This document shows, piece after piece, positions 19,101 to 42,142 of a stretch of DNA of 64,000 nt. The stretch's first letter is position 1, and every line of letters starts with the position of its first letter. Origin of the DNA: Candidatus Aenigmatarchaeota archaeon (GTDB lineage: Archaea; Aenigmatarchaeota; Aenigmatarchaeia; CG10238-14; SCSR01); the NCBI GenBank assembly GCA_016181005.1, contig JACPAE010000001.1:62001-126000 (forward strand), in the 5' to 3' direction. The position numbers and the translations under genes are program-made. A model generated the notes under the pieces. That model saw only the letters and a list, made by a program, of their open reading frames with translations. It was not told the origin of the DNA and did not search any database.

Positions 19101-19379
19101 AAAGGAGCATTAACTTGTCAAGTGACGACAACGCCCACTACCGTAGCAAAAGGTAGCCTGGATTTCTGTGCACAAAAAATAAAGGATGGTCTAGGTGAGT
19201 GCGTTGTTGGACAGGGTGGATGTGTGAACAATAATGAATGTAGTCCTAATGAGTTCGGGCCGACTGGAGGTGGACTAGAATGTAGAAATGTTGGTGTGAG
19301 AGTTAATGTTTGTTGTTATAAAGATGAAAGTAATGATAGGTGCAAGTCGTTGTTTGAAGAATGGCTTAAGAGTACTTAA
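16182..19379 (+). CDS. Large membrane protein with regulatory-like beta domain and C-terminal lysozyme-like domain
   Basis: The 1065-residue protein opens with a zinc-finger-like CRICDVEYTDPRIHRELAH (C-x2-C...H...H). A carboxypeptidase-regulatory-like domain follows (GIIKGKVTDSKTGQPLSEV, residues 63-150), then a charged linker and about five membrane helices (190-350). A long outer region has paired cysteines and beta domains. Near residue 880 comes WGEESGFSDALVQYSAALG, which fits the catalytic Glu and helix pattern of transglycosylase/lysozyme folds, with FAKWYSAGP after it. A cysteine-rich tail ends the chain. The last 4 bases overlap the convergent lipoprotein gene. Codon choice is AT-richer in the first kilobase and after 18.6 kb than in the middle. 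Confidence 0.6.
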   Translation: MPRCRICDVEYTDPRIHRELAHPDRDVKDITGSTYEVIARVPPGLLGGGDRRGDREEREPPSGIIKGKVTDSKTGQPLSEVAYIQADSPYVSRPFNVPTDQDSSYQITVPTRGGGIEYSVIATADFYKKPRPRVVRVAPGQTVNNVDFSLEPDEEALKKHGEETKAKKEEERKQRGEKASIWQRGWWSRERLLIGGGAFIITALTYAIFYRPIILEGLGFDDPSAPPWWILTVFVPIAFFFAVYNLIPRDIKDIRPIVIGAIAAGVTFLLLQIGPLSTIRSPTIQFGIPLIVFFVVAYVAQNNLQQPGGVGRTILWLTGIFAVIGVGFYVLNLFTTGAFLNIETYLQPLNVLTVVGVPQETVDGMKQGIRDVLKFLNVQAIKPLKPEVKKSGGFEAIQLNFGSKFNDYRLPTLFARMEYLLPVTIINPNKIETGVEPVKGFYIDEVYIINGSTDKVICGVAPLPLKVETAKQESPIFSGRVDVGDILPQEEKSLTILFTGRSPKITDEGKYVNCSYTASFGKTYSFTPLAPVRVKESPSGENSVIKACEKAQNKRECYTSQCKSYCQGVMQTSNGRYGVHNKLDEPATRYIENTNECECKIKRLDNVMDDLCFMSGNKAKLELKAHYNFFVEGKGELVVAQQEADQKLVPKPRVTSSLGPLTVTAYFVPDIYVVERNAGVVTLFVDIANDGEGSATINDYEIKDFDTRTCVPTTPLSADAKASTTIVCDATAFAKGAKLQGRFTTLPLIVDVNYSYSQKYTKDLNVEKKSISDIVTEGSDEYIDLDRQFSPLPYYCERGLNIYGSGGQAISVAPVTQPTAPSSCDGCTLPIKDTSILPSESARISYCNSRPQSSACDTATWNRVVKRAQELGLNPALIVSLWGEESGFSDALVQYSAALGCDPYHTVGYDKEIDDQLNCVSDLVNKGSYLNCGGTEFCSFAKWYSAGPACTLTNNPNFYGNLAKIYNDFVQAGKGALTCQVTTTPTTVAKGSLDFCAQKIKDGLGECVVGQGGCVNNNECSPNEFGPTGGGLECRNVGVRVNVCCYKDESNDRCKSLFEEWLKST

Positions 19380-20403: not shown

Positions 20404-22113
20404 CTAAACTGGAAAAGTCAATTGTATACCATTAATTAAATTAATGTAACCGTCCCAATCAAGATAGGCTCCTGGATCTGTATGGCAGTCGGAACCACCA
20501 CCGCCGGATACAGGACATCCTGGAACTTCGTTATGGCCTATTATATGAGACCTGTCTATTGGGATATTGTATTTTGTTGCTAGCCATTTAGTCAATGTGG
20601 CGGACGCTTGCAACATTTCCGGTGTCCAAGTACTCGGATCTCCAGAGCGGCCTTCGTGTTCTATACCAATACTGTGCACATTGTAATCATAATATCCGGC
20701 ATGGAATGCTATGTCCTTATCTGAAACGACTTGCGCTATTTTTCCAGTTTTGCTTATTACATAATGTGCGCTTACTTGCCTAGTGCTCCCCCTAAGTGCG
20801 TTTATGCAAGCCTGATAACCCCCTTCACATGTGTGTACAACTATGTATTTTATGTCAGTCCCGTCTGCTTCTCTATTTGCAATATTGTAATTAAATCCAG
20901 AAGTACCACCGCCAACAAATACTATATCAAGGTCTAATGGTGTACCAGGAACAATTACAGGTTGTGGAACTGTGGGAGGTGTGCCTTCAGGAACTCCATG
21001 TAAAGGAACTTCAAAAACAGGTGTGCTTGAAGGGAACCCGAGTAATTTGTCGCCACTTAGAACATAGAAATTCATTTCCAAATTCCTTAAATTAGTTGTT
21101 TTCTGCACAGTGTCGTATACCGGATATAGATTTTGTTTATCTTTTATATTCACCAAAGCGCCTACGCTCGAGGAATAATCGTATGTGCAAGTTTTAGTGT
21201 ATAATGGAATGCAACCCCCCATTGGACTGCAACCACATCCGTTTGAATCTACATCTAATTGACATTGACCTTCATTATCAACATAAGAGTTTACACCTAT
21301 CTTTAAAATAACATCTATATTTGTTGAATCAAGTTGTGAATCCAAATTACCGATATTTTGTTTGATTAAATTTTCATATTGATTTAAAGCATTTGGACAT
21401 TTTTGTTCAAGATTACTTTTTTTATCCAGAGGTGTTGGTGGTGAAAAACATTTAGATTCGACTATACTCTTACATTCAGAAGGCATTTGTTGTTCTGAAA
21501 ATTCTATTGCATCATTTATGGAATCTCTTGCTACAAAATTTTCATTAGCTTTATCAACTAACACTTTTACATTTAATTTCACAACTTCGTTAACATCTGG
21601 TATGTCTGATATCTCAATATTTTTACTAGTGAATTTAATCTTTGATTCTGATACTGGTTTAATGCTTACACTAGCAAGTTTATCGACTTTAACCTCTATT
21701 TGAGGTATTTCTATATTAATTTTTTCGGTTTCTTTTCTTAAAGAAGATAAATATTCATTGAATCTCCCTTGCAGTATTTGGGTTAAATCGTTTTCTAGTT
21801 TTCCGGGTGGACAAGTTTTTTCGAAAGTTCTCCAAAAAGGAAGATTGGCGAATCTTATTGGTTCACATATTTCTCCAGTAGAATATCCACCATATTTTAA
21901 AGTTTCGTAAGTACCTTGGTATGCTGAATAAATTAAAGCTTGGTTTATTGCTCTTTTCACAAACTCCATCTGATTTATTCCTTCGACGATAATCCGTTCG
22001 TTAAAGTCCCTCACAACAGTTTGGGATTCGTATGATAACGTAAGTGAGTATATGCCTATCAGTGTGAGAATGCCTGCAGCAGCTACCAATGCCACGTTTG
22101 CTACCGACTTCAT
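20404..22113 (-). CDS. Pilin-like protein fused to N-acetylmuramoyl-L-alanine amidase (amidase_2) domain
   Basis: The start is ATG 22113, which overlaps the stop of the preceding gene (ATGA). The N-terminus MKSVANVALVAAAGILTLIG and following residues form one hydrophobic helix, then a beta-rich pilin-type body with several Cys. After a proline-rich linker comes an amidase_2/PGRP domain (about 417-560): VVHTCEGG with His427, GHNEVPG with His527 and HTDPG with Asp546 as zinc ligands, plus ISKTGKIAQVVSDKDIAFHA. Such enzymes cut the bond between muramic acid and the stem peptide of bacterial peptidoglycan. The protein is 569 residues. Whether the leader is cut is unclear, because the KG motif is missing here. 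Confidence 0.8.
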   Translation of the reverse strand: MKSVANVALVAAAGILTLIGIYSLTLSYESQTVVRDFNERIIVEGINQMEFVKRAINQALIYSAYQGTYETLKYGGYSTGEICEPIRFANLPFWRTFEKTCPPGKLENDLTQILQGRFNEYLSSLRKETEKINIEIPQIEVKVDKLASVSIKPVSESKIKFTSKNIEISDIPDVNEVVKLNVKVLVDKANENFVARDSINDAIEFSEQQMPSECKSIVESKCFSPPTPLDKKSNLEQKCPNALNQYENLIKQNIGNLDSQLDSTNIDVILKIGVNSYVDNEGQCQLDVDSNGCGCSPMGGCIPLYTKTCTYDYSSSVGALVNIKDKQNLYPVYDTVQKTTNLRNLEMNFYVLSGDKLLGFPSSTPVFEVPLHGVPEGTPPTVPQPVIVPGTPLDLDIVFVGGGTSGFNYNIANREADGTDIKYIVVHTCEGGYQACINALRGSTRQVSAHYVISKTGKIAQVVSDKDIAFHAGYYDYNVHSIGIEHEGRSGDPSTWTPEMLQASATLTKWLATKYNIPIDRSHIIGHNEVPGCPVSGGGGSDCHTDPGAYLDWDGYINLINGIQLTFPV

Positions 22114-23699
22114 GTTACACCAATCCCTATGATTTTTACCAGTGAGTCTTTGTTGTAAGGCAGGACGAAGACTGTGTTGAAGACCACATTTGTCGGCTTG
22201 GGCTCTGATAAAATTCCGCCTGGAGGTATAGTAGCATATCCTGTTAAAATTGATGTTCCTGTCGTCGATTGCCCATTTTGTGTTATTCCACAAACCTCAT
22301 TGCTTTTCTCTTTTAATGCATTGCAAAAAGTCGACTCGTCTTGATAGAATGAAAAATCATCACACCATCCTTCGTGCAACTTAGGTGAGAATTGCCAGAC
22401 AAGAAAACCATCGGCACCTTTGCTGAAGAAACTATCTATATCACTTTTATAAGCTTCGCTCTTTCTAATTTGGTTCACATTGGCGCATGGTTGACAGTTA
22501 GAGCATATAAACTCATTGGGTGTAAAGCCGTCAGACTTGTGATAAGTGACTATACCCACTTCACCAAGAAAATATGGTTTATTAAGTTGGTTGGCAATTT
22601 TTAACTCTTGTAATTGATAATATTTACTTTCGTCCGATAATGGTCTATAAGCATCAGGATAATAGTGCGATGTTACAAGGTCTACTGTTGATATCGAATG
22701 TAATCTCCGATAGCTGCCGTCATCTATTGTTGCACCAGGTGTTAGACTGCCTACAACCCCTATCGAAATTAAGTGGTTTGGATCGGCAGATTTTATAGCT
22801 TTGCTCATATCCTTTACAAAATTGTAAAATGCATCATAACATCCTTGATTTTGATTCTTATCACAGGTGGGTTCATTTGCTAGTTCCCATGCAAATATTA
22901 CATCATTGTTTTTGTGGTTGGGTGCTGATACAAAATCTATTACGCCTTGTCTCCAATTAGAATCTATTGCACCTTCTAAATAATTTATTTTATAACCTTC
23001 GTCAAACCAATAAGTAGGATTTTCTACTTTAAACCTGTTATTAACAAAGTCGTCTAAAACTATTAAAAATTTTACATTGTATTTTTTCCCGAGATTTAAC
23101 AATGCATCCATATTTGGACCATTAAATACACGTATTATAGTCGTGCCACAGCTTCCTGAAAGGTATTTAACAAAATTTTCCATGTCTTGTGCTGTATACT
23201 CATCACTAAATTCACTTGCCATCCAATGTGCATTCACACCAATAAACTTGAATTCTCCGTCATTGAGAGTCAATTTTGTACCTGCAACTTTTACAAATCC
23301 TGAACCTCTGCATAAAGAAAGAGTTGGTGTAGGTGGTGCTTCTTCCTCTGGTGGTGGTGCTTCTTCCTCTGGTGGCTCTGCTGGTAGTTCTCTAGGTTCT
23401 ATTCCTATAGAAATATAATAGTTATCAGTTCCAACTAATTTTTCAAACTGACTTTTAATAGCCCCGTTTGTTGGCTTGTTCAAAATATAATTTGTTCCTA
23501 TAGTTTCGTATGTTGTCTTGTCAGCAGATTCTGAAGACAATAAAGCAAGCAAAGCATGCTGAGTCTTTTCGGATTCATAAGTGTAAACCAGCTCCCTATC
23601 AGCCGTCATCTTCACAACTGTAGGTGGCACAATCAAACCCGCCATTATTGTCATAGTGCCTATAAGTCCGATGAGCGGTAATTCTGCTAAAGATTTCAT
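22110..23699 (-). CDS. Pilin-like protein with inserted GH5-type glycoside hydrolase domain
   Basis: The 529-residue protein starts MKSLAELPLIGLIGTMTIMA (hydrophobic anchor) and a pilin-like body to residue 100. After a linker rich in PEEE and PPP (105-125) there is a GH5 (beta)8 domain, residues 130-470: FIGVNAHWM, FAWELANEP with acid/base Glu276, and KPYFLGEVGIV with nucleophile Glu380. The GH5 fold includes endo-glucanases and beta-mannanases, so the exact substrate is open. A short segment (GYATIPPGGIL ... VVFNTVFVLPYNKD) after it appears to return to the pilin body. It overlaps the gene before (23696) and after (22113) by 4 bases. Confidence 0.8.
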   Translation of the reverse strand: MKSLAELPLIGLIGTMTIMAGLIVPPTVVKMTADRELVYTYESEKTQHALLALLSSESADKTTYETIGTNYILNKPTNGAIKSQFEKLVGTDNYYISIGIEPRELPAEPPEEEAPPPEEEAPPTPTLSLCRGSGFVKVAGTKLTLNDGEFKFIGVNAHWMASEFSDEYTAQDMENFVKYLSGSCGTTIIRVFNGPNMDALLNLGKKYNVKFLIVLDDFVNNRFKVENPTYWFDEGYKINYLEGAIDSNWRQGVIDFVSAPNHKNNDVIFAWELANEPTCDKNQNQGCYDAFYNFVKDMSKAIKSADPNHLISIGVVGSLTPGATIDDGSYRRLHSISTVDLVTSHYYPDAYRPLSDESKYYQLQELKIANQLNKPYFLGEVGIVTYHKSDGFTPNEFICSNCQPCANVNQIRKSEAYKSDIDSFFSKGADGFLVWQFSPKLHEGWCDDFSFYQDESTFCNALKEKSNEVCGITQNGQSTTGTSILTGYATIPPGGILSEPKPTNVVFNTVFVLPYNKDSLVKIIGIGVT

Positions 23700-24355
23700 T
23701 CTACCACCACGACTCTTAGCATCCCCATGTTTGTTTCATCATCTGAATATCGTATGTTAACTGGAAAGGCACCGTCTAGAATTGTTGCTGCCTCGTATCC
23801 GCATTCTTCAAAAGCCAACGTTTGCAATCCTTTGTCAAAGATTTTTGGTATGTCATTTTGGTTAAAGTTCATCAAGCATGAGGTAATGTTGCCAAGCAAC
23901 TGTATTTGCTGGTCAGGAGTTAGGTAATCCAATGGGGGGTATAAGACTGAAAACCAGCCGTTTCCATTTTTAATGTCAGAAACCGCGATGAAAGCGAATG
24001 ACTCTGGAGGTGAGCTAGCATATTTGCATATTCCTCCTCCTGTAGCAACATCTACTTTACAAACTGCCAAGTTGTCTACCTTCAGTTCAGCTAATTTAAA
24101 AAGATTAGAATCTAATTTAGCGCTGTCAAATTTCCCACGATAAGTTACATCACCATCAGCATATGCTAATGCAGGATTTGACATTAATGAATTTCCTAAA
24201 ATTATTGCCTTATTTTCAAATTCTTTCTCTTCAATAACAGGCGTGACTTTAACAACATCAGAAGGAAGAACTATAGCAAGAGTTACAGCTATGAGACCGG
24301 TAAATAAAAGCGCGAAAAGAGGTTCGATGTACGATGCCATTCCTTTTCTTTTCAT
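23696..24355 (-). CDS. Pilin-like protein with class III signal peptide
   Basis: The start is ATG 24355 (MKRKGMASYIEPLFALLFTG), giving 219 residues. The KRKG-M motif followed by one hydrophobic helix is a class III prepilin leader. The ectodomain has paired cysteines and no enzyme motif. It begins 5 bases after the upstream lysozyme-like gene and overlaps the GH5 gene by 4 bases. It is probably a structural or minor pilin. Confidence 0.65.
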   Translation of the reverse strand: MKRKGMASYIEPLFALLFTGLIAVTLAIVLPSDVVKVTPVIEEKEFENKAIILGNSLMSNPALAYADGDVTYRGKFDSAKLDSNLFKLAELKVDNLAVCKVDVATGGGICKYASSPPESFAFIAVSDIKNGNGWFSVLYPPLDYLTPDQQIQLLGNITSCLMNFNQNDIPKIFDKGLQTLAFEECGYEAATILDGAFPVNIRYSDDETNMGMLRVVVVE

Positions 24356-24360
24356 AACCA

Positions 24361-25191
24361 TCAACAAGGTCCAAGTCCACAATTGTTTGCATTGGTTTTC
24401 CAGGGACACCAATTTGTGCCGCCACTTGAAATTTCATATGCCTTTTGCATGTTTACTTCAGCATTTCCATATCCGTAATCCTGTTTGCACCGTTCAAGAG
24501 CATTTTGATCGACTATCTGGCATCTTGGATTGCTATAATCATGATTCCATGTAATGCCAGCTGGACAGCGGTCTAACAGATTTGTTTGGAACAGACCGAC
24601 GCTATAGTCTGCACTTGTTCCTCTTAAGCATGCGTCATTCAAAGCTCGTGTATTCCCCCCGCTTTCTTTCTGACATATCTGCGATGCTGCCTCCGCCGCT
24701 GAACCGAATACTGCTCGTAATTTCTCTGGAGAGCATTCGCCAGAACCCAATTCACACGTTCCAGACTTCGGAATTCCTATACTTGGTGCTGTATCTGATT
24801 TTGATAGATGAAGAGTCGCCTTGCCTGATTCTTTACTTATAACCAAGAACTTGATGTCCTCCTCTGAAAATTCTTTATCTATCCGAAGAAAGGCTTTGGA
24901 TTCGGAGCACGCATTCTCAGCACACACTTCAACATAGCCGCTTGTTTTAACTGTGACTTTGTAATCTTTTCCTTCAGGGAACTCGTGGCTTAATGTTATG
25001 CTGCCGGGTGAATTGTATGCAATGCTTAGGAGACCTGCAACCGTTTTTGCCTGGTTGTTGACAGACTCTTTGTCAAGAACTGTCCTTATGTCGTTAGACA
25101 TTGCCGGCAGTTGTGTAGCAAGCAATAAAACCGAGATGGCAATAAAGCCGACGTTGACTAGTGCATCGACAACTACGACACCCTTTTTCAT
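24361..25191 (-). CDS. Pilin-like protein with C-terminal lysozyme-like transglycosylase (SLT) domain
   Basis: The 276-residue protein begins MKKGVVVVDALVNVGFIAIS (class III leader), then a compact pilin body. The C-terminal 120 residues contain ICQKESGGN with catalytic Glu176 and SVGLFQTN (197-204), followed by the conserved aromatic AYEI..GG..WCPW. This is the SLT/lysozyme fold that cleaves the glycan strands of peptidoglycan. Eight or more cysteines in this domain suggest disulfides outside the cell. The TGA is 5 bases before the next ATG. Confidence 0.82.
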   Translation of the reverse strand: MKKGVVVVDALVNVGFIAISVLLLATQLPAMSNDIRTVLDKESVNNQAKTVAGLLSIAYNSPGSITLSHEFPEGKDYKVTVKTSGYVEVCAENACSESKAFLRIDKEFSEEDIKFLVISKESGKATLHLSKSDTAPSIGIPKSGTCELGSGECSPEKLRAVFGSAAEAASQICQKESGGNTRALNDACLRGTSADYSVGLFQTNLLDRCPAGITWNHDYSNPRCQIVDQNALERCKQDYGYGNAEVNMQKAYEISSGGTNWCPWKTNANNCGLGPC

Positions 25192-25217
25192 AACTCTATT
25201 TTGTTTTTAGGATTAAA

Positions 25218-25511
25218 TTATGGGCACGAACGGGCCTGAATGCATTTGGAATCGTCTGAGGCGCGCTTCAGGACTTCTGTGCAGCACTGGTCTCTTGTAG
25301 GTACCCCTTCACACTCCTGATCCCATTTTGGGCACTGCCCTCTTACTATCCAGTTGCTGCAGTATGCTAGCCTCTTGGAATAGCAGCCGGCCTCCTTGCT
25401 GCCGAAATTGCTCACATCTATCCACTGGGCGAAAATCGCTATGATGAAGAAGAATGTTATTGCAATGACTCCCACGATGAAGACTGCCTGAACTGCGACT
25501 GCTTTGGACAT
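25218..25511 (-). CDS. Small cysteine-rich pilin-like protein
   Basis: The start is ATG 25511 (MSKAVAVQAVFIVGVIAITF), 97 residues, one N-terminal hydrophobic helix then a short ectodomain. Its pattern EAGCYSKRLAYCSNW...C...C...CC is shared with the proteins at 25619 and 30441 (C-x4-6-(Y/F)-C...W...C). It is probably a minor pilin with disulfides. A perfect 7-bp inverted repeat lies just upstream. Confidence 0.6.
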   Translation of the reverse strand: MSKAVAVQAVFIVGVIAITFFFIIAIFAQWIDVSNFGSKEAGCYSKRLAYCSNWIVRGQCPKWDQECEGVPTRDQCCTEVLKRASDDSKCIQARSCP

Positions 25512-25524
25512 ATTAAACACTTGT

Positions 25525-25543
25525 CTTTCAAACAGCTTGAAAG
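25525..25543. promoter_or_regulatory. Perfect 7-bp inverted repeat in the pilin operon
   Basis: CTTTCAA, 5-base spacer ACAGC, TTGAAAG. It is in the intergenic part 14-32 bases before the ATG at 25511. It could be an RNA hairpin that sets transcript levels between operon genes, or an operator. No T-run follows on the minus strand, so a factor-free terminator is not obvious. Confidence 0.4.
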
Positions 25544-25618
25544 TAACTACATTATAAGAACCTGCAGGTGATGCAGAACTGTCCGCAGAGAAGCTCACTC
25601 TCCACTTGTATTCTTTCT

Positions 25619-25996
25619 CTATGCACACCTAGTAGAAACACAAGAACCACTTGCACATTCGCTGTTGGCGGCACACGAAGCTCCGGCTGCCTTAAGGCCT
25701 GTACTTACCCCTAAATCTGCACATTCGTCGGCTGATAATGCCTGATATTTACGGTCTGGGAAAGCGGTTTTGCATTCTGCTGTTTCTATCCAGCCGTTTA
25801 AATCTGGAGTCGAGCCGGCTGGTGTCGCTCTAGCTTGTTGGTCGCAATATCTGATTACTTGGTTATTGCATTGCAACTCTGCGGAAGAAATGCCTATCCG
25901 ACCGCCTGAAACAAACAACCAATAGCCAATAAGGCCAATAACAGCTATGCCAAGAAGAATGGCGATAATATAAGGAACTGCAATACCTTTCCGCAT
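25619..25996 (-). CDS. Small cysteine-rich pilin-like protein
   Basis: The start is ATG 25996 (MRKGIAVPYIIAILLGIAVI), 125 residues. The RKG-I leader and the GYWLFVSGG motif after the helix parallel GYWFFYAGG of the protein at 30441. The ectodomain carries the same LQCNNQVIRYC...W...C pattern as the two related genes, plus a C-terminal pair C-A-A...CASGSC. It is a paralogous family of minor pilins by inference. Confidence 0.65.
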   Translation of the reverse strand: MRKGIAVPYIIAILLGIAVIGLIGYWLFVSGGRIGISSAELQCNNQVIRYCDQQARATPAGSTPDLNGWIETAECKTAFPDRKYQALSADECADLGVSTGLKAAGASCAANSECASGSCVSTRCA

Positions 25997-26073
25997 CAAG
26001 TTCACTAGATTATTATTTGGGAGACCTTATTTAAGTATTTTGTTTGGACTGTATTTAAGTATTATTGAACTTT

Positions 26074-27915
26074 CTATCTTATAACTACATTCTTTTGTCC
26101 ACTATCTCCTTTATTTCCAGCCTTATCAATTGCGTATCCTAAGATAGTACATGATGCTTGACCAGAAGGTGATTTTTTACAATTACCATTTGGGCCAACT
26201 GTAATTGGTATTTGCGTATTACAATTTCTTTCTCTATTTTCTATCGATATGCCTATATCATCTTCAGGATTAGAGGGCTCACCATATCCAGTAGCTTCGT
26301 ATGTAACACTATAATAACATTTGCTCACTCCACTTTTATCCGCTCCAGCTCCTTGATCTTCGTCGGAGAACGAAGCAGTAAAGTCTAGAGTCGCTTCAGA
26401 CGGTGCATTGATAGTTGTTATTGGTTTAAGAGGATCATTTTCTTGTATTGTTATTTCTGTAGAAGCAGAACATGCAGACTGATCACCTTTGAAATCAACT
26501 GAGTAAGTTCCAAAATTAAATAACCATGTTCTACATATCCACTCCCAACCAAAACTCTTTCCATCGGTTGTTGGATTATTGCAACATGTGGGTTCTCCGC
26601 AATTAGAGAATGCTTCAGATTCTAGAACAACATTGGTGCACATTGCATCAGAGGTCGCTCTTATTGATAGGGCTTGACCACGAATTGGTCTGTTAGTTTC
26701 AACGTATATATTTGAAGATGGTGGCTGATAATTCACAGATGCGACATTTGTCTTTACTATTACAACATTCTTGTCTCCAAGTGCTGCTGCCTTGAACTTG
26801 TACTCGGAAGGTTCGGAGCACTTTATGGACCATGTAGCTTCGCACTTGTCGCCATTAGAGCATGGGTACTCAACAATCCTGCCGCCTTGCTTTATGCCTG
26901 AATATTGGCTTGCAAACTCGCATTTCCCAGTTTTGTCGCCTTCGTCGTCAAGGTTGAGCTGTATAGATTTAATGCCTTTCTTCGTCTTGTCCTCTGCGTT
27001 GATTGCTATAGCAACTTCTCTGTTGACCACTTGTGTAGTAGGATTTATCGACAATTTTGCCGTAGGTTTTGAAGATATGGATGAATCTTTCCAAATGTAA
27101 TATTCCCCAGACTGTTCGTTTTCGCACTTGGCTTCTACTATTACACTATCCCCGCTAAATGTAGACCTCTTGTCCTTTTTTGCTTCATCATTGTTGCACG
27201 TATGCCATTTGCCGTCACCGCCGCATATAAGGCCGTATTTCACTTCATATGAATTGTCCTTGACTAAATCGCACATTGCACGATTTTCTCCGCAAGTGTC
27301 TTTAAAGTCCTCCACTAACTGTGAAAACCTCTGTTTTTCTACAAAACGGTCGTCTACATCATCTTTATCACATACTTTCGGTTGCAAAATAGTTCCCTCT
27401 CTCCAAATTGTGAATTTCCCTGATTTCTGTTCTGTTGTGGCGTCGCAGCCTGACGCGGCAATTTTGCCTTCTATACATTTACCTAAATAATCCCCACATC
27501 CGCTCTGTATCTCTGTTCCAGGGTTGACATAGTATATGTAGCCAACATAGACGTCAAAAAGTGCCTTTTCTTCTTTTGTCGTGAAAATGATGCAACTGTT
27601 CTTATCATTAAAATTTACTGTATCTATTTGAAACCGGGATTTTATGTCAATTCGATCTTGTTGAATATGAACATTCTGATTTGTCAAATGAAACTCGGAC
27701 ACGCCGAACTTGCTTTCCTTGTCAAGGTATTTAATCAATTTTATATGTACTGCTTTGCCCTCCCTTGGAACCCCGACCCGATTCAACAATTCTTCAAGAA
27801 ATCCAAAAAGGTCAATATTAAATGCTTTCAGCAGAAAAGATACAGCAACCACTAATACCGCTATCATTAGGAAAATCTGCATTATTGCCTCTACTGCCAT
27901 TCCTTTCTGCGACAT
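26074..27915 (-). CDS. Pilin-like protein with multi-domain Ig-like ectodomain
   Basis: The 613-residue protein starts MSQKGMAVEAIMQIFLMIAV (class III leader) and then DLFGFLEELLNRVGV. The ectodomain has about four beta-sandwich segments, including PTAKLSINPTTQVVNREVAI and DPLKPITTINAPSEATLDFT, with a regular series of cysteines. No catalytic motif is seen. Its length and position after the platform genes fit a tip adhesin or a major scaffold that holds the effector pilins, by inference. Base use turns AT-rich in the 3' half. Confidence 0.6.
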   Translation of the reverse strand: MSQKGMAVEAIMQIFLMIAVLVVAVSFLLKAFNIDLFGFLEELLNRVGVPREGKAVHIKLIKYLDKESKFGVSEFHLTNQNVHIQQDRIDIKSRFQIDTVNFNDKNSCIIFTTKEEKALFDVYVGYIYYVNPGTEIQSGCGDYLGKCIEGKIAASGCDATTEQKSGKFTIWREGTILQPKVCDKDDVDDRFVEKQRFSQLVEDFKDTCGENRAMCDLVKDNSYEVKYGLICGGDGKWHTCNNDEAKKDKRSTFSGDSVIVEAKCENEQSGEYYIWKDSSISSKPTAKLSINPTTQVVNREVAIAINAEDKTKKGIKSIQLNLDDEGDKTGKCEFASQYSGIKQGGRIVEYPCSNGDKCEATWSIKCSEPSEYKFKAAALGDKNVVIVKTNVASVNYQPPSSNIYVETNRPIRGQALSIRATSDAMCTNVVLESEAFSNCGEPTCCNNPTTDGKSFGWEWICRTWLFNFGTYSVDFKGDQSACSASTEITIQENDPLKPITTINAPSEATLDFTASFSDEDQGAGADKSGVSKCYYSVTYEATGYGEPSNPEDDIGISIENRERNCNTQIPITVGPNGNCKKSPSGQASCTILGYAIDKAGNKGDSGQKNVVIR

Positions 27916-27945
27916 AATAAAAATAATTAGTTTGTGATAAATAAG

Positions 27946-28305
27946 TCACTGGCAAGCTTCATTGACTTTGTATCCCCCAAAACCGCCAGCTAGTGCACCT
28001 AAACCAGCACCTAATGCACATCCAACGGGAAGTCCAACGCCTCCAGCCAGAAATCCTATTCCACAACCAATACCGCCAAAAAGTACTCCGCCAGCACCTG
28101 CACCTATGGCGACTCTTCCTGCCTCATCACCAGGTACTCTCGGAACTATGTTCTCGCAAGCAAATCTATTCATTGCCGCGCCGAGAAGACCAATCGAAAC
28201 CCCTGTAATCTTCTCAAGAATGCTCCAGATCAAAACCAAAGCAATCGCCGCAGTAATCAAAGTGATTATCATCGTCAAAACTTTTCCAAAAACTCCCTTT
28301 TTCAT
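27946..28305 (-). CDS. Pilin-leader protein with glycine-zipper hydrophobic domain
   Basis: The 119-residue protein starts MKKGVFGKVLTMIITLITAA (class III leader). After a short soluble part (residues 44-70) there is a long Gly-rich stretch with repeated G-x3-G spacing (GVLFGGIGCGIGF, then GGVGLPVGCALGAGLGALAG). Such glycine zippers pack helices in membranes and occur in membrane-inserting peptides and outer-membrane lipoproteins. The preceding gene's stop is directly followed by this ATG. Confidence 0.55.
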   Translation of the reverse strand: MKKGVFGKVLTMIITLITAAIALVLIWSILEKITGVSIGLLGAAMNRFACENIVPRVPGDEAGRVAIGAGAGGVLFGGIGCGIGFLAGGVGLPVGCALGAGLGALAGGFGGYKVNEACQ

Positions 28306-28416
28306 TCAACCGCCCTTGAACCTCTGGTAAATGCTGTATCCTGCCAAAAGCACCATCAACCCAATCATGAGCATGACAATGAACCAGATTATATAGTCCG
28401 TGACCCCTTTTCTCAT
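28306..28416 (-). CDS. 36-residue mini-pilin-like protein
   Basis: A very short frame: ATG 28416, stop 28306-28308, 36 residues. It starts M-R-K-G-V-T-D-Y and then holds a single hydrophobic helix (WFIVMLMIGLMVLLAGYSIY) with a basic end RFKGG. The class III leader and the perfect spacing (TGA-ATG with the next gene, 32 bases after the TadC gene) make it a likely real gene. It would be a leader and stalk helix with almost no ectodomain. Confidence 0.6.
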   Translation of the reverse strand: MRKGVTDYIIWFIVMLMIGLMVLLAGYSIYQRFKGG

Positions 28417-28448
28417 CAACCTTATTTGGGATTCCGAATATTAACGAT

Positions 28449-30410
28449 TTACTGGAGAGTAAGACGCTCTATTGATATCACCGAAGTGAACACGAAGTAA
28501 GTGACAAGCAGGGATATGAAATAAACTATAGCGCTGTAGAGCAGTATCTTTGCGACATTCAACCTCTTCAGCAAACTCTCATCACCGTTGGTTATCGTGC
28601 TTGACGACACGGCTATCAGCGTGGCAATCTCTACAAGGTAGACTCCTACAATCAGCTGGAATGCGTGGACAGGAAGTATCGAGCCGATGTTGAAGATGGA
28701 CTGGAAAATTCCCGAGCCTATGTCGCTGGCAGGACCCAGCGCCGAGCCTAGGCTCCCATAAATGTTCTTTATCGATTCCCCTAAACTGACAAGCAGCCTT
28801 GTCATTATTGCTGCCAGTGTCACGACAACTCCGGCGCTCAGTGGCGCAAGGACAATGGCCTGCGTGTTCATCGTCGACGTCACGTCCTCCATCATGTTCT
28901 TCAAATCCTCATTCACCTCCCGCATGTCCTTCAGGTACTTGGAGATTATCACCATGGACTTGGACGCGCTCTGCATCCCCTTCTGCGACGTCTCGACAAC
29001 AACATTCATTATCGCCTCTATGAGCGTTGAAGGGTAGTATCTTATCGCGCCGTACTGCTTGTCGAACACCGCGCCCTCGAAAGTCATGCCGAACGTCTTT
29101 ATGTTGTAGAGTATCTTGTCGAAAAAGTCAGATATCTTCATGTTCTTCGTCTGCTCCTTGGACCTCTTGAGTGCAGTCTCTAGAGGAATCCCCCTCATCA
29201 TCAGGCTGCCGAGCTGGAACAATGCCTCTGCGAACTCGCCCTCTATATCTGCGATCTCCTGCCTTATCTTCAGCTTCCTTCTCACGGAAAGATAGGAATA
29301 GCTTATGATGCCGGCGAATATCCCAAGAGTCACAAGCATCGAGTAAACCATCAGCTCAAAGCTGAAAATCTCCTTGGCGCCGATTAACTTCGAGATTCCG
29401 AAGCCGATAAGCGGCAGCGACACCAAAACAGGAATTATGTACGGCTTTTCGTAGAACTTGTCCACCGCGAACTGCGGGTGCTTCCTCAAGTCGGGCTGGT
29501 GGAAGCTGTACGGCCTCCTCTCAAGATAGCTCGACATCAGGAAAAACACTATCAGCGGCAGGAAAACGTCGTAGCCGATCACAAGCAGCACCGGCTTTAC
29601 AATCTCCGGGAGGAATATGCTTACCACAGGAAAGAACACCAGGCCTATTATCGGCAGGAGTATCCCCAATGCATTCAGAATCGTCACAGGCTCCTTCATC
29701 TCCCTTGCATATCCTTTCATCCTCTCCTTTGTGCCTTCCAGTATCACAGAAACAGCCTCGTCCAAAAACCTTTCGCGCTTTAGCTGCGATTCAGCGCTGG
29801 AGTTCTTTATCAGATACAGCGCTGTGGCGAACTCCTTGTTCTCCCTCTCCCATTTCTTGATGAAGACTTCAAGCGCGTCCTCTATCCTGTCGTACTTTCT
29901 GGTGTAGACGCTCCACAAAAGCTCGCGCAGGTCCTTGGCCAGCGCCCCCTTGAGGTTCCTTGACGCAAACTTTACCGAATTCTCCAAGTTGGCCGACAGA
30001 TGCATGGAGATGCTCATGTAGATTGCTGCAAGAACCATTTCTGAAGACGCATTTATCCTAAAGCTGGTGGCATAACGGATCGGGTACGATGCTAGGAAGT
30101 AGAATGTCATCGACGCTATTGTCAGGGAGAGAATTGTTGTCGAAAGTGAAAACGAGTCCAGCGATATAAGCAATGTCAATGACGCTGCAAAAATCATCAG
30201 TGTTGCAACAATTGAAAGAGTGATTGCCCCCTTCGGCGTAATCTTCAGGTGGGAGAATTCTATTGCCTCGCTGTATTTTGACTCCAGACCTTTGGGCAGG
30301 AATACAGGCAGGAACTCTGATATTTCGCAAAGCCTTTCGTAAATGGAAAGCTTCCTTGCCAACTGCTCCTCCTGCAGGAACTTTTCATAGTCTCTTGAAA
30401 TTGCCGGCAC
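28449..30410 (-). CDS. tadC: TadC/GspF-type membrane platform protein of pilus assembly
   Basis: The 653-residue protein has two repeated T2SSF/TadC modules, each with a soluble helical domain followed by membrane helices (ASEMVLAAIYMSISMHLSANL; IEGEFAEALFQLGSLMMRGI, then SAGVVVTLAAIMTRLLVSL). It belongs to the archaeal FlaJ/TadC class of inner-membrane platforms, on which the ATPase pushes pilins out. It starts with GTG 31 bases downstream of the small pilin gene. The protein is close to twice the length of a single TadC, as in archaeal homologues. Confidence 0.85.
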   Translation of the reverse strand: MPAISRDYEKFLQEEQLARKLSIYERLCEISEFLPVFLPKGLESKYSEAIEFSHLKITPKGAITLSIVATLMIFAASLTLLISLDSFSLSTTILSLTIASMTFYFLASYPIRYATSFRINASSEMVLAAIYMSISMHLSANLENSVKFASRNLKGALAKDLRELLWSVYTRKYDRIEDALEVFIKKWERENKEFATALYLIKNSSAESQLKRERFLDEAVSVILEGTKERMKGYAREMKEPVTILNALGILLPIIGLVFFPVVSIFLPEIVKPVLLVIGYDVFLPLIVFFLMSSYLERRPYSFHQPDLRKHPQFAVDKFYEKPYIIPVLVSLPLIGFGISKLIGAKEIFSFELMVYSMLVTLGIFAGIISYSYLSVRRKLKIRQEIADIEGEFAEALFQLGSLMMRGIPLETALKRSKEQTKNMKISDFFDKILYNIKTFGMTFEGAVFDKQYGAIRYYPSTLIEAIMNVVVETSQKGMQSASKSMVIISKYLKDMREVNEDLKNMMEDVTSTMNTQAIVLAPLSAGVVVTLAAIMTRLLVSLGESIKNIYGSLGSALGPASDIGSGIFQSIFNIGSILPVHAFQLIVGVYLVEIATLIAVSSSTITNGDESLLKRLNVAKILLYSAIVYFISLLVTYFVFTSVISIERLTLQ

Positions 30411-30440
30411 AATTAAAGATTGTCTTTATTCAGGCATAAG

Positions 30441-30746
30441 TTAAGGCGTCGTCGGCTTGCTGCAGCCTGAAAAGCTAGTGCCTTGGATCGGCTCCCAGCC
30501 AGGAATTATTGAACTGCAGAATTTATAGCACTCGTCGTTCTCGAATTGCTTGCCGCATTTTGTCTTTATCTTGTCCCAATTCTCCTGCGTCTGGAAAGTG
30601 CAGAACCGAATCTTGACTGCGATGCACTCGGCCTCGTTCGTGCCCTGGCGCCCTTGTCCGCCTGCATAAAAGAACCAATAGCCGAGCAGCGCTATTACTG
30701 CAACTCCCAAAACAATTGCTACGATGTAATTAACCGCGCCTTTCAT
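30441..30746 (-). CDS. Small cysteine-rich pilin-like protein
   Basis: The start is ATG 30746 (MKGAVNYIVAIVLGVAVIAL), 101 residues. It has the KG leader, the LLGYWFFYAGG motif and the ectodomain pattern ECIAVKIRFC...W...C...C, so it is a paralogue of the proteins at 25218 and 25619. It sits between the ATPase (17-base gap) and the platform gene, a usual place for a major or minor pilin. Confidence 0.65.
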   Translation of the reverse strand: MKGAVNYIVAIVLGVAVIALLGYWFFYAGGQGRQGTNEAECIAVKIRFCTFQTQENWDKIKTKCGKQFENDECYKFCSSIIPGWEPIQGTSFSGCSKPTTP

Positions 30747-30763
30747 AATATCACTTCTGCCAT

Positions 30764-32629
30764 CTATTTGATTCTTCCCTTGAACCAGTTCAGCCACTTG
30801 TCGTAAATCATCTTGGAATCCATAGCTCCTATTTCCTCCCTTACCTGCTCTGAAATCAAATGGAACATGGAGTTGGACTCGACAGCATACTCGGCCTCAA
30901 GGATGTTTGGGTTGGTTTGGCCGGCCAGTTCAACCATCGTTTCTTTAATCTTCGCCCTCAGCAGGATGTTGTCCCATACTGCATCCCATCGGCCTCTCCA
31001 CTCCCTCACTCTTTTCGCAATCTCGTTCAAGACTTCAGACTCGCCGTCTATCAAAGTGTCTGTCGGCTTTAGCGTGTCCTCCTTTGCCGAATACTCCATC
31101 AAATTAACAAACCCTCCTTCGTCCATGGGATCGTTCTTCCAGTTTTTCCTTATCTCGGTCAATTCAGTGACCCTTCTGAACCTGTGAAGGCCGTCGGGGG
31201 ATTTCAGCTGGTTGCACACTGTGATTAAATCCAGCGCCTTGAAGCTTGTCGGCGGCACGCCTAAATCATGGACAACCCTGTCATAAACGCCGTAAGCTGA
31301 TTCCCCGTGAATTGTGCCGGCGACGACATTCGCCAATGCCCCAATTCTCATGGCCTCGAACAATGCAAGGCTTTCCACGCTCCTAACCTCGCCGATTATA
31401 AGAACAGAATCTCCCAATCTCAACGCAGTCCTCAACGCCTCGTCTGCAGGCAACTCAGTTTCCACTTTTGTAATTACAGAGCGGGATTTCATTCTTTCAA
31501 TGTTGTAGCCGAGCCTTCTCATGTCAGCGACTGCGATTTCTAAAGTGTCTTCCGAGGAGACTACTCTGAATTTCGGCAGGATGTCGAGCATTAGTGCATT
31601 AAGCAGGGAAGTTTTTCCCGAGCCTCGACCGCCTGCGACAAGCAGCGCCCTTCCGCCGTCGATGACAAAGCTCATCACTCCTGAATACAACGGGTCTATC
31701 ATTTTGTGCTTGATGAAGAGCGGAATAGTCCAAGGCCTTTCCCTGTGCCTTCGGAAAGCGAATGCCAGGCCTTCCGGCGACAGCGTCCTTGTAATTGCAG
31801 CAACCCTTGCCTTTCCTCCAGGAACAACCAGCTCTGTGTCAAGCACCGGGTTTGATTCGTCCAGAGGCCTGCCGGAGAAAAGCCTGAATCTTGTCGCCCA
31901 TGCGTCTGCGTCCTCCATCGTCGGCATTAAGTTTGTCTCGCACTCCTCATAATCAGAATGCAAAATGAATATCGGCACGGTGCCTATCGGCGAGTTTACA
32001 AACACGTCCTGGATTTTCTCGTCCGATAGCAGAAGCTCAAGAACTCCATAGCCTGCAGTGTATCGCGAAAGTATGTTCGCCAGCTCGTCTATCTCTGCCG
32101 AAGAAAGGTTGACGTTCATGCTCTGCGCGATGTCGCGCACCAAGTCCCTCCCAAGATTCTTGAAGAGCTCGCGCGATTTTTCCGGCTCTACAGTTTCTGC
32201 TTCCGTTGGTCTGTGGGACGCGAGATACCTTCGCGCAGAATCCAGGATCGAATATTTTTCGTCGCTGAGGACAAACTCCTTCGGCGTTATATGATAAAGA
32301 TAACGCACCTTGCCGAGCAGCTTGTAAATTTCCACCTCGGCCCCCTTTATGCTGTACTTTTCAAGCAGCCTTGCGCCCTTCGGTATCGACAGCATGAACC
32401 TTGTGAGCATAAAGTTCGGCTTGACTGTCGGCGAGAATAATTCGCGGTAGATGTCCCTGCTTCCAAGCTGGTAGTTTTGCAGTACCGGCATGGATTTTTT
32501 AATCAGAGCTGTCCCCTCAAGCATGTTCTTTATCGGCACTAGAGCATTGTTCAAATAATGGACGAACGCCATTCTCTGCTCCAGCGGAGCCGTGTTCTCA
32601 AGAACCTTGTTCGCGTTCACCATCTTCAC
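30764..32629 (-). CDS. tadA: PilT/TadA/VirB11-type secretion ATPase
   Basis: The 621-residue protein has Walker A AGGRGSGKTSL (333-342), Walker B-like VLIIGEVRS (409-417), the Asp box ELPADEALRTALR and the His box GTIHGESAYGVYDRVVHDLG, all typical of type II/IV secretion ATPases. It drives pilin assembly or retraction. The N-terminal half has the family's extra helical domain. A GTG at 32629 is used; an ATG at 32623 is equally possible. It overlaps the upstream small gene by 32 bases. Confidence 0.9.
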   Translation of the reverse strand: MKMVNANKVLENTAPLEQRMAFVHYLNNALVPIKNMLEGTALIKKSMPVLQNYQLGSRDIYRELFSPTVKPNFMLTRFMLSIPKGARLLEKYSIKGAEVEIYKLLGKVRYLYHITPKEFVLSDEKYSILDSARRYLASHRPTEAETVEPEKSRELFKNLGRDLVRDIAQSMNVNLSSAEIDELANILSRYTAGYGVLELLLSDEKIQDVFVNSPIGTVPIFILHSDYEECETNLMPTMEDADAWATRFRLFSGRPLDESNPVLDTELVVPGGKARVAAITRTLSPEGLAFAFRRHRERPWTIPLFIKHKMIDPLYSGVMSFVIDGGRALLVAGGRGSGKTSLLNALMLDILPKFRVVSSEDTLEIAVADMRRLGYNIERMKSRSVITKVETELPADEALRTALRLGDSVLIIGEVRSVESLALFEAMRIGALANVVAGTIHGESAYGVYDRVVHDLGVPPTSFKALDLITVCNQLKSPDGLHRFRRVTELTEIRKNWKNDPMDEGGFVNLMEYSAKEDTLKPTDTLIDGESEVLNEIAKRVREWRGRWDAVWDNILLRAKIKETMVELAGQTNPNILEAEYAVESNSMFHLISEQVREEIGAMDSKMIYDKWLNWFKGRIK

Positions 32630-32978
32630 GATTCTCTTTCCTCAAAACTTCCAGAACTAGAAATTGCAAGTCACCAAGCCTTTTTGGAACTAATTTTTCG
32701 AACTGGGGCGGCGCCATGTTCTTCATGCTTAGAATCTTGTCGACGTTGACAATCCTGTTGTAGACATCCGCGATTTCCCTCAGCATCCTTGTCTGCTCCT
32801 CGTCGTACTCGTTCTCGCGCGCCTCAACCAATGCAACCCTAATGGCATCGGGCACCTGCAGGAGCTTGTCAATAACAATCGCCATCGTGGCTTCCGAGTC
32901 CTCCACGCTCGGCGCTATCGCCCAGTTGATGCAGTTGATCCTTATCACATTATTGACGACTTCGTACTCTACAGCCAT
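32598..32978 (-). CDS. Small helical protein upstream of the pilus ATPase
   Basis: The 126-residue protein (MAVEYEVVNNVIRINCINWA ... ENEYDEEQTRMLREIADVYN) has no membrane segment and is rich in charged helices. It overlaps the ATPase gene by 32 bases, which implies coupled translation. It could be a stand-alone N-terminal helper of the ATPase. No family is recognised. The gene is first in the operon, facing the divergent plus-strand set. Confidence 0.5.
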   Translation of the reverse strand: MAVEYEVVNNVIRINCINWAIAPSVEDSEATMAIVIDKLLQVPDAIRVALVEARENEYDEEQTRMLREIADVYNRIVNVDKILSMKNMAPPQFEKLVPKRLGDLQFLVLEVLRKENREDGEREQGS

Positions 32979-33022: not shown

Positions 33023-33451
33023 ATGGCCATCCCAGACCCCACTAGAATACTGCAGTTCGAACAGCACGGCGACATCACAAGGCTTGCCGAAGAGCTTGTA
33101 AAAAGACTAAATGAAAATACGAGAAGGATAAGGATTGTGGAGCAGAGGATGGACAGGATGGACAATTCTATCAATGCTTTGGAGGACAACACGCTGAACC
33201 AGCTTAACGACTTGAAGATGTTTTTGGAGAAGATAACCGACAGGCTTGTGTCGCTTTCGGAGAAGCTTGTGGGGATAGAGAGCGAGATTTTGCGGCTGAG
33301 CAAGGAGCTGTCGAAGACTGCGACTAAAAGGGAGTTTAAGGAAATAGAGACCTACATGGAGCTCATCAACCCTGTGACCGCAAAGTACGTGACGAAGGAC
33401 GAGATGGAAAGGTACATAAGTTTGAAAATACCCAAGGCGAAGAAGGCTTAG
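33023..33451 (+). CDS. Coiled-coil protein, FlaC/D/E-like in its C-terminus
   Basis: The 142-residue protein is mostly heptad-type helix from residue 20 to 105 (RRIRIVEQRMDRMDNSINAL). Near the end, ELINPVTAKYVTKDEMERYI recalls the small domain at the end of archaellum FlaD/FlaE proteins. It could be a cytosolic ring component. Its divergence from the pilus ATPase operon supports that idea, but it is an inference. Confidence 0.5.
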   Translation: MAIPDPTRILQFEQHGDITRLAEELVKRLNENTRRIRIVEQRMDRMDNSINALEDNTLNQLNDLKMFLEKITDRLVSLSEKLVGIESEILRLSKELSKTATKREFKEIETYMELINPVTAKYVTKDEMERYISLKIPKAKKA

Positions 33452-33488
33452 CTTTATGTTCAGGTAAAATTAAACTAATTACAGTGAA

Positions 33489-34124
33489 ATGATGGCTTTG
33501 CCTTTTCTTAAATCGAAACCCAAAGTTGCCCCGGTTGATAGGGTAAAGGAATTGAGCGGGAAGGGGTTTTCAGATTCCGAGATTGTCGACATTTTAAGGA
33601 AGGATGGATATCAGGCATCGGAGGTCGACGCCGCTTTGACGCAGTCCATGAGGTACGAGGCCACCAGGTCGCAGACGACGGAAAGGAGCGAACTTGAGCT
33701 GCCAACCTTGGAGGACATCACGCCGGAGACAAAGCCCCAGATGCCGCAGATACCGGAGACTTCGCTGCCACAGCAGTACTACCAGGAGCAGGCGCAGCAG
33801 TTCCCGACAGAGGAGTATGTCGATTATATAGTCCAGGCTAGGATGGGGGAGCTTAACGAGAAGATTGTGGAAGTTTCTGTCAAAATCCAGGGTTTTGAAA
33901 AGAGGCTCACCGAACTAGGCGACAGGATAAATGAAATCCTTAGCTTGAGGAATGCGGAGCAGACGCAGATTTTGAGCAGGATAGACACATTCAAGGACAG
34001 CGCTGGCGGCGTGGAGACGAGGATTGGAGCGCTGGAGAAGGCTTTCAGGCAGACATTGCCGGCGTTGATAGAATCTGTAAGGGCGTTAAGCGATTTGGTC
34101 CAGAGGATGAAATCGGAAGCTTAA
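33489..34124 (+). CDS. Coiled-coil protein with UBA-like N-terminal helix pair
   Basis: The 211-residue protein begins MALPFLKSKPK and an UBA/CUE-like three-helix motif (GKGFSDSEIVDILRKDGYQA). A Pro/Gln-rich linker (residues 75-110) follows, then a long coiled coil (LNEKIVEVSVKIQGFEKRL). Two ATGs open the frame; the second at 33492 is just as likely. It is probably a scaffold protein interacting with the membrane proteins downstream. Confidence 0.5.
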   Translation: MMALPFLKSKPKVAPVDRVKELSGKGFSDSEIVDILRKDGYQASEVDAALTQSMRYEATRSQTTERSELELPTLEDITPETKPQMPQIPETSLPQQYYQEQAQQFPTEEYVDYIVQARMGELNEKIVEVSVKIQGFEKRLTELGDRINEILSLRNAEQTQILSRIDTFKDSAGGVETRIGALEKAFRQTLPALIESVRALSDLVQRMKSEA

Positions 34125-34150
34125 GACATTCAAACACCAATTAAGATAAA

Positions 34151-34657
34151 ATGGCAGTTCCTATAGAGACTTTCATAAGCGAGAACTTTAAGATTTACCT
34201 GGTAACTCTCATAATACCGTTCCTGATTTTCTTCACGCTCTTCCTCTGGGCGCTTAAGCAGACGAGGCTGTTCGGCGGGAACAATTTCACATATGTCTTT
34301 CTTGCGGCGTCGTTCACCATTCTGATTTACGCGCTTCAGCCCAACACTTTCGCCTTCCTTGCAAGTTATCTGGCGCAGATAAGCATAGCGAGCAGCATGA
34401 TAGTTTTCGTGGGATTGATTGCGCTTATATTCTGGGCTATTATTGTGAGGGGTGTCGGCATGGCTGAGAAGCTCAAGAGCGACGAGAAGAAGCTGGAAGA
34501 CTTGAGGAGGCTGGAGTCCAGGCTAATGGAAAAGTTCAGCAGGGAGAGGAATGTTAAAAAGAGGTATGAGTTTAACTCAAAGCTAAACGAGATCGAGAGG
34601 GAGATGCAGATGTTGAACATAAGGATGAAGAAAAGGGCTAGGACTATTTACAGCTAG
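34151..34657 (+). CDS. Membrane protein with cytoplasmic coiled-coil tail
   Basis: The 168-residue protein has three membrane helices (YLVTLIIPFLIFFTLFLWAL and others) and a charged helical C-terminal tail (LKSDEKKLEDLRRLESRLM). Function is unknown. It lies between the coiled-coil genes and the three membrane paralogues, all on the plus strand with 25-40-base spacing. Confidence 0.55.
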   Translation: MAVPIETFISENFKIYLVTLIIPFLIFFTLFLWALKQTRLFGGNNFTYVFLAASFTILIYALQPNTFAFLASYLAQISIASSMIVFVGLIALIFWAIIVRGVGMAEKLKSDEKKLEDLRRLESRLMEKFSRERNVKKRYEFNSKLNEIEREMQMLNIRMKKRARTIYS

Positions 34658-34697
34658 TTGCTTTAAATTTTTAGTAAACTAACTTATTTTAGAGAGA

Positions 34698-35779: not shown

Positions 35780-35783
35780 ACCT

Positions 35784-35876
35784 ATGAACAGAAGAATTTC
35801 AAGCGTTGTGATTGGCGTTGTCAGCCTTTTGATGTTCTCCACTCTTGTTTTTGCGCAGACAGGCTTTGACGACTGA
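35784..35876 (+). CDS. 30-residue secretion-signal-like peptide overlapping the next gene
   Basis: ATG 35784 to TGA 35874-35876, 30 residues: a pair of arginines after Met-Asn, a hydrophobic stretch (VVIGVVSLLMFSTLVFA) and A-Q-T at a signal-peptidase-like site, then TGFDD and stop. The stop overlaps the next ATG (TGATG). It could be a short secreted peptide, or the true N-terminus of the third paralogue carried into its frame by a shift. Confidence 0.4.
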   Translation: MNRRISSVVIGVVSLLMFSTLVFAQTGFDD

Positions 35877-40997: not shown

Positions 40998-41001
40998 GTC
41001 A

Positions 41002-42090: not shown

Positions 42091-42142
42091 CTAAAACACA
42101 TTATAATTCTGCCATAATTGAAATAAGTTCAATTAATTTATA

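What the first reader, a model, noticed from the sequence alone, without database searches (positions are those of the whole stretch)
20404..32978. Pilus-like machine whose pilin-like subunits carry cell-wall hydrolase domains
One minus-strand operon contains a TadA/PilT-type ATPase, a TadC-type platform and about ten class III-leader proteins. Three of the latter carry a GH5-type glycosidase, an amidase_2 domain and an SLT/lysozyme domain. The first two attack bacterial peptidoglycan or polysaccharides when so named, and no murein synthesis genes are in the window. A pilus that presents wall-lytic enzymes to a partner or prey cell, as in a contact-dependent feeding or killing organelle of a small symbiotic archaeon, would explain the set.
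Basis: partly seen in the sequence, partly recalled or inferred. Interest (0 to 1): 0.93.

Follow-up and report, generated by a model that had tools for sequence, protein, structure and literature searches.

The report
Archaeal pilus carrying cell-wall-cutting enzymes
A tiny, probably host-dependent archaeon of the phylum Aenigmatarchaeota has a pilus operon in which three pilus subunits carry enzyme parts, two of a kind that cut bacterial cell walls; across its class the same subunits carry different wall-cutting or binding parts or none, which looks like an interchangeable tool tip and points to bacteria as the target.

Summary
The window is an Aenigmatarchaeota (DPANN) chromosome. Genes 32978->20404 (minus strand) encode a TadA/ArlI-type ATPase, a TadC-type platform and nine proteins with class III (prepilin) leaders; three carry SLT_3, GH5 and Amidase_2 domains. 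The GH5 resembles endo-beta-1,4-mannanases, so it is not a murein enzyme. Comparison of 156 genomes of the class shows four conserved minor-pilin families with exchangeable cargo. In the GH5 slot the cargo sits in a loop before an invariant last strand ('LPYN'): nothing in G002, CARDB in G001, GH5 in the window and G003, M23 in 17 ORFs elsewhere. The amidase slot carries Amidase_2, SLT+Amidase_2, SLT+C39, M23, a C-type lectin, or nothing. Of 122 SLT/M23/Amidase ORFs located class-wide, 36 (32 genomes) belong to these pilin families, mostly with catalytic motifs intact. No Mur ligase was found in the window's genome. Best reading: a Tad-like archaeal pilus whose minor-pilin tip displays interchangeable murein hydrolases or lectins towards a partner cell, probably bacterial. 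Closest analogue: the Myxococcus Kil pilus with 'adaptable tips'. Tip position, enzyme activity, filament formation and killing or feeding are inferred, not shown.

The parts
32598..32978 (-). N-terminal part of the assembly ATPase (126 aa ORF); one ORF of about 746 aa with the next gene in relatives
30764..32629 (-). TadA/ArlI-type pilus assembly ATPase (621 aa)
   Evidence: T2SSE E=3e-15; profile hits 2oap, CpaF, FlaI; in 142 of 156 genomes of the class, 39 of 39 high-quality ones
30441..30746 (-). short class III pilin (101 aa), MKG/AVNYIVAIVLG
   Evidence: homologous to the 125-aa pilin in relatives
28449..30410 (-). TadC-type platform protein (653 aa)
   Evidence: T2SSF E=8e-7; next to the ATPase in most relatives
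27946..28305 (-). class III small glycine-rich protein (119 aa)
26074..27915 (-). large class III protein (613 aa)
25619..25996 (-). short class III pilin (125 aa)
25218..25511 (-). short class III pilin (97 aa; likely start 25511, not 25628)
24361..25191 (-). minor pilin 1 ('SLTp', 276 aa) with C-terminal lysozyme-like SLT_3 domain (domain at 24394-24678)
   Evidence: SLT_3 E=1.7e-9; orthologues without the domain are 125-126 aa in G001/G002, with Ig-like + lysozyme-like region 412 aa in G003
23696..24355 (-). minor pilin 2 ('pil238', 219 aa), no cargo
22110..23699 (-). minor pilin 3 ('GH5p', 529 aa): pilin domain with a GH5 mannanase-like domain in the loop before the last strand (FVLPYNKDSLV)
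20404..22113 (-). minor pilin 4 ('AMIp', 569 aa) with C-terminal Amidase_2 domain (domain at 20470-20862)
   Evidence: Amidase_2 E=9e-29; AmpD match; orthologues with other or no cargo
16182..19379 (+). convergent neighbour: large membrane/extracellular protein (1065 aa) with C-terminal lysozyme-like domain
   Evidence: adjacent in relatives; domain also in G003 (SLT_3 E=1.9e-5), absent in G001/G002; M23 at this position in G020/G025/G027, SLT in G023, C39 in G031
33023..36346 (+). divergent neighbours: two coiled-coil proteins (one weakly FlaC-like) and four small membrane proteins, next to the ATPase in many relatives; possible accessory genes

Best explanation
The operon builds a Tad/archaellum-type pilus. 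The ATPase and TadC-like platform extrude a filament of short class III pilins. Four minor pilins, encoded together at the end of the operon, form a priming or tip complex. These minor pilins have fixed pilin domains and exchangeable cargo at two kinds of site: a loop before the last strand (GH5 slot) and the C-terminus (amidase and SLT slots). In this species the cargo is a mannanase-like glycosidase, an N-acetylmuramoyl-L-alanine amidase and a lysozyme-like domain. On contact the tip would strip surface glycan and locally cut the murein of a bacterial partner, for entry, feeding, DNA or nutrient capture, or killing. Shown: gene content, leader pattern, homology of the slots, cargo exchange, intact active-site motifs, prepilin peptidase in the genome, no Mur ligase found. 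Inferred: filament, tip position, activity, bacterial target, biological outcome.
For: Class III leaders on 9 of 9 candidates vs 2 of 54 controls. ATPase in 142/156 genomes of the class. Same-genus orthologues with no cargo, CARDB, GH5, or an M23-like (by eye) region + GH5 at one insertion point, the last strand being conserved in all. Class-wide: 36 of 122 SLT/M23/Amidase ORFs belong to the minor-pilin families, in 32 genomes; GH5 slot M23 x17; amidase slot M23 x6, SLT x5, SLT+Amidase_2 x4, M23+SLT x1, Amidase_2 x1; far above a rough chance baseline. In families f15/f32 the module with SLT+M23 lies apart from this ATPase but keeps its pilin neighbours. Catalytic motifs HxGID..HLHFE, ES..GLMQ, VVHT..IGIEHE..IIGH..DPG present in most. 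Alternative cargo: C-type lectin, endostatin/DUF1554-like domain, C39 peptidase. Prepilin peptidase at G000:C1:93770. No Mur ligase hit in this genome.
Against: No experiment. Only 32 of 156 genomes have a detected direct fusion, and two species of the same genus have none, so the enzymes are optional. GH5 is not a murein enzyme. The AlphaFold model of the amidase pilin is poor (pLDDT 46) and its fold search found nothing; the GH5 model is moderate (pLDDT 58). A filament-tip position is argued by analogy only. A few M23/SLT domains in pilins are truncated at contig ends or lack motif residues. 66 of 122 hydrolase ORFs are neither members nor neighbours of the module.
Confidence: 0.66

Rival explanations
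1. The minor pilins act as a membrane-held pseudopilus (type II secretion-like). The hydrolases work as cell-surface enzymes for scavenging murein and mannan debris, without a contact organelle.
For: DPANN genomes are small and nutrient-poor; GH5 mannanase is a scavenging-type enzyme; similar domains also occur outside the pilin module.
Against: The ATPase and platform with several short major-like pilins fit an assembled filament; cargo alternates with lectins and CARDB in the same slots, which suits adhesion better than digestion.
Confidence: 0.15
2. The enzymes act on an archaeal surface (S-layer glycoprotein, pseudomurein, own envelope), easing passage of the pilus or attachment to an archaeal host.
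For: Hosts of cultivated DPANN are archaea (PMC11291902); a GH5 could cut host glycans.
Against: SLT/lysozyme, M23 and Amidase_2 with intact catalytic motifs are classical murein families; three such chemistries recur in one module. Pseudomurein is cut by other enzyme families (own knowledge).
Confidence: 0.11
3. The domains are inactive or mainly serve as wall-binding adhesins: the pilus only anchors the cell to bacteria.
For: Lectin and CARDB domains occupy the same slots; a few SLT/M23 copies lack motif residues.
Against: Catalytic residues are present in most copies, including all three in the window.
Confidence: 0.08

Closest known systems
Kil Tad pilus of Myxococcus xanthus with interchangeable minor-pilin 'Tips' (PMC12075869, PMC8460266)
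   Same: Tad-type machine; minor pilins with fixed pilin parts and variable exposed domains; contact with other cells; predation context
   Different: Bacterial; the paper does not mention peptidoglycan or hydrolases (0 occurrences), whereas here the variable domains are recognisable enzymes; Kil works with a needleless T3SS, which was not looked for here; archaeal owner
Modular minor pilins PilB/PilC of Streptococcus sanguinis T4P (PMC8179133, PMC9934059)
   Same: Minor pilins with an added module (VWA, lectin) at the filament end; lectin cargo also occurs in the amidase slot here
   Different: Adhesion modules, not murein hydrolases
Archaeal peptidoglycan hydrolases that kill bacteria (PMC12352652)
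   Same: Archaea using murein hydrolases against bacteria
   Different: No pilus or pilin is mentioned
Woesearchaeota 'vampiristic' murein transglycosylases (PMC9723730)
   Same: DPANN with murein-degrading enzymes, predation proposed
   Different: No pilus connection in the text
DPANN pilin-rich 'dark matter' islands with TadC (PMC6393860)
   Same: The same general kind of island: TadC-type gene and many leader-bearing unknown proteins
   Different: No hydrolase or cargo exchange described

Membership tests
Archaeal type IV filament system (class III leaders, assembly ATPase, platform) | Assembly ATPase of the secretion superfamily | tested here: met
   T2SSE E=3e-15; profile hits 2oap, CpaF, FlaI
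Archaeal type IV filament system (class III leaders, assembly ATPase, platform) | TadC/ArlJ-type platform protein | tested here: met
   T2SSF E=8e-7, above the curated cut-off
Archaeal type IV filament system (class III leaders, assembly ATPase, platform) | Subunits with class III leader cut before the hydrophobic helix | tested here: met
   9 of 9 by pattern; cleavage itself not tested
Archaeal type IV filament system (class III leaders, assembly ATPase, platform) | A24 prepilin peptidase in the genome | tested here: met
   G000:C1:93770-94111
Tad pilus / Kil system | TadA equivalog score | tested here: not met
   TIGR03819 121.7 bits against a cut-off of 373; FlaI 122.9 against 550: related to both, a member of neither named equivalog
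Tad pilus / Kil system | Heterotrimeric KilLMN/TadEFG tip complex | tested here: inconclusive
   Conserved minor-pilin families found, but the model is too poor to compare folds
Tad pilus / Kil system | Contact-dependent killing | not testable with these tools
   needs live cells
Peptidoglycan hydrolases | Fold family and catalytic residues | tested here: met
   Amidase_2 and SLT_3 over curated cut-offs; motifs present
Peptidoglycan hydrolases | Activity on murein | not testable with these tools
   needs purified protein
GH5 as a murein-directed enzyme | Similarity to murein-cutting glycosidases | tested here: not met
   Nearest solved relatives are endo-beta-1,4-mannanases

The most novel reading that the evidence does not exclude
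A class of DPANN archaea uses a pilus with exchangeable enzymatic tips to breach the murein wall of bacterial hosts or prey: an archaeal contact-dependent wall-breaching organelle, and evidence for DPANN that live on bacteria.
Probability: 0.45. Interest if true: 0.93.

Novelty: new variant of a known kind. Interest (0 to 1): 0.82.

Why it matters
It would give uncultured Aenigmatarchaeota a concrete molecular handle on their partners and suggest bacterial hosts or prey, while cultivated DPANN described in the literature depend on archaea. It extends the 'adaptable tip' idea from bacterial Tad pili to archaea and to recognisable enzymes, and makes testable predictions: which species carry amidase, lysozyme, M23 or lectin tips should follow the wall type of the partner.

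Tried and rejected
A genus-wide essential role of the hydrolases was rejected, because two species of the genus lack them. GH5 as a murein enzyme was rejected. Structure of the amidase pilin: low confidence, Foldseek search uninformative. A single origin of the M23 cargo: the domain tree does not unite the slots (starred branches force at least 2 label changes for the GH5 slot and 4 for the amidase slot), but it has few columns and is weak. Phage origin of the amidase: only remote endolysin matches, about 30-40% identity, so undecided. A MAG chimera was rejected: the fusions sit in conserved operons of many independent genomes. 'No murein genes' was tested only by Mur_ligase_M; single hits occur in 24 of 156 genomes, as they also do in M. 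jannaschii and H. volcanii, so they were not taken as evidence of murein synthesis.

Full report
What was checked. The window is G000:C5:62001-126000 of a 740 kb genome in five contigs. ATPase relatives in named records are overwhelmingly Candidatus Aenigmatarchaeota, including a same-genus groundwater genome, JACPJU010000001. The region 32978->20404 (minus strand) holds twelve co-directional ORFs with gaps of at most 143 bp; GH5/AMI and pil238/GH5 overlap by 4 bp.

The machine. The ATPase belongs to the TadA/ArlI/GspE superfamily. It scores about equally against the FlaI and TadA NCBIfam equivalogs, far under both curated cut-offs. It is found in 142 of 156 genomes of the class and in all 39 high-quality ones, usually followed by the TadC-like gene. 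In the window the ATPase is split into ORFs of 126 and 621 aa, while relatives have one ORF of about 746 aa. An A24 prepilin peptidase is encoded elsewhere in the genome. Nine operon proteins carry a short leader ending in K/R plus G/A/S just before a hydrophobic helix (9 of 9, against 2 of 54 other ORFs).

The enzymes. Minor pilin 4 carries Amidase_2 (E=9e-29), minor pilin 1 SLT_3 (E=2e-9), minor pilin 3 a GH5 (E=2e-7). The amidase aligns with AmpD. The GH5 aligns with endo-beta-1,4-mannanases by sequence, and the model fold agrees. The catalytic motifs can be read in the sequences: VVHT/IGIEHE/IIGH/DPG in the amidase, QKES/GLFQ in the lysozyme-like domain, and ANEP/GEVG in the GH5.

Cargo exchange within the genus. 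The orthologue of the GH5 pilin is 163 aa with nothing inserted in G002, 249 aa with a CARDB domain in G001 (Pfam E=5e-10) and 720 aa with GH5 plus an M23-like stretch in G003; the M23-like stretch was read by eye and is not called by Pfam. In all, the protein ends in the same strand (LPYN...), and the alignment with family- and order-level relatives shows LPY invariant. The cargo therefore sits in a loop of a split pilin domain. The SLT pilin is 125-126 aa without cargo in G001/G002, and 412 aa in G003 with an Ig-like and a lysozyme-like part (SLT only E=0.03). The amidase is appended after the pilin domain and is absent in G001-G003. The convergent neighbour (16182-19379, +) has a lysozyme-like end in the window and G003, not in G001/G002.

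Cargo exchange across the class. Searches of 156 genomes found Amidase_2 in 10, M23 in 56, SLT in 46 and SLT_3 in 4 genomes. I fetched most of these places and built profiles of the four minor-pilin families with the enzyme domains masked. Of 122 hydrolase ORFs located, 36 (32 genomes) are themselves members of a minor-pilin family, and 56 are members or lie within 4.5 kb of one. Nine further hits were not located. Slot contents: GH5 slot M23 x17; amidase slot M23 x6, SLT x5, SLT+Amidase_2 x4, M23+SLT x1, Amidase_2 x1; SLT slot SLT x1, SLT_3 x1. Against a rough baseline of 4 module genes among 180 exported proteins the excess is overwhelming (P about 5e-30); that baseline is an assumption. In families f15 and f32 the module lies away from this ATPase but keeps its neighbours. 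G031 carries SLT+C39; G056 a C-type lectin, G050 an endostatin/DUF1554-like domain. G031 also has a C39 domain in the convergent neighbour, as in its amidase-slot pilin.

What it most likely does. The pattern is that of a filament with a fixed minor-pilin scaffold and an exchangeable exposed domain. The nearest functional precedent is the Kil Tad pilus of Myxococcus, whose KilLMN tips expose variable domains and affect which prey is killed (PMC12075869); modular pilins with lectin or VWA modules are known from Streptococcus sanguinis (PMC8179133, PMC9934059). New here are the archaeal setting and that the exposed domains are recognisable wall hydrolases of three chemistries. Since no Mur ligase was found in this genome, and the enzymes are secreted-side cargo, self-remodelling of a murein wall is unlikely. 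The target is most simply a bacterial wall. Whether the outcome is killing, feeding, attachment or DNA capture cannot be said.

Limits. No structure of useful quality was obtained for the amidase pilin. The tip position is inferred from gene order and analogy. The fusions were found in 32 of 156 genomes, many of them incomplete, so true frequency is uncertain. The searches used named Pfam families, so other cargo is missed. Earlier work reports type IV pili in Aenigmarchaeota only from thermal sites (PMC8407114); the ATPase and module seen here are far wider, presumably because of different annotation criteria.

Verdict. The sequence claim is solid. The functional claim is plausible, specific and testable, but unproven. 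I rate it a new variant of a known kind.

Noticed in passing
32598-32978 / 30764-32629 (-): The ATPase is split into two overlapping ORFs in the window, while relatives have one ORF of about 746 aa; the junction differs from G001 by a missing stretch and a frame change. Could be an assembly error or a real split.
   Followed up: partly
G036, G046, G047, G011, G061, G123 and others: The ATPase gene is interrupted by long in-frame inserts near residues 341, 364 or 416 of the query (open frames of about 1250-2000 aa), which look like inteins.
   Followed up: no
L034:9331-10301, L035:9385-10337: A nucleotidyltransferase (MNT) plus HEPN-like pair is inserted between pilin genes of the operon in G001 and G002.
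   Followed up: no
33023-36346 (+): Divergent cluster of coiled-coil proteins and four paralogous-looking small membrane proteins, next to the ATPase in many relatives; function unknown, possible pilus accessory genes.
   Followed up: partly
40515-46813: A lower-GC island with a DNA cytosine methyltransferase, a Vsr-like endonuclease, a DGQHR-type protein and an HTH/ImmA-like gene (read by eye): probable restriction or defence island next to tRNA-Leu.
   Followed up: no
L054, L071, L170: In G025, G027 and G023 a second TadC-like gene follows the convergent hydrolase gene, suggesting a second filament locus next door.
   Followed up: no
G000:C4:77372-77641 (L163): A separate 221-aa SLT-domain gene lies elsewhere in the window's own genome, away from the operon.
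   Followed up: no
class-wide, e.g. L181, L183, L193: A family of short (about 150 aa) stand-alone M23 proteins, mostly one branch of the M23 tree, occurs in many Aenigmatarchaeota outside the pilin module.
   Followed up: partly
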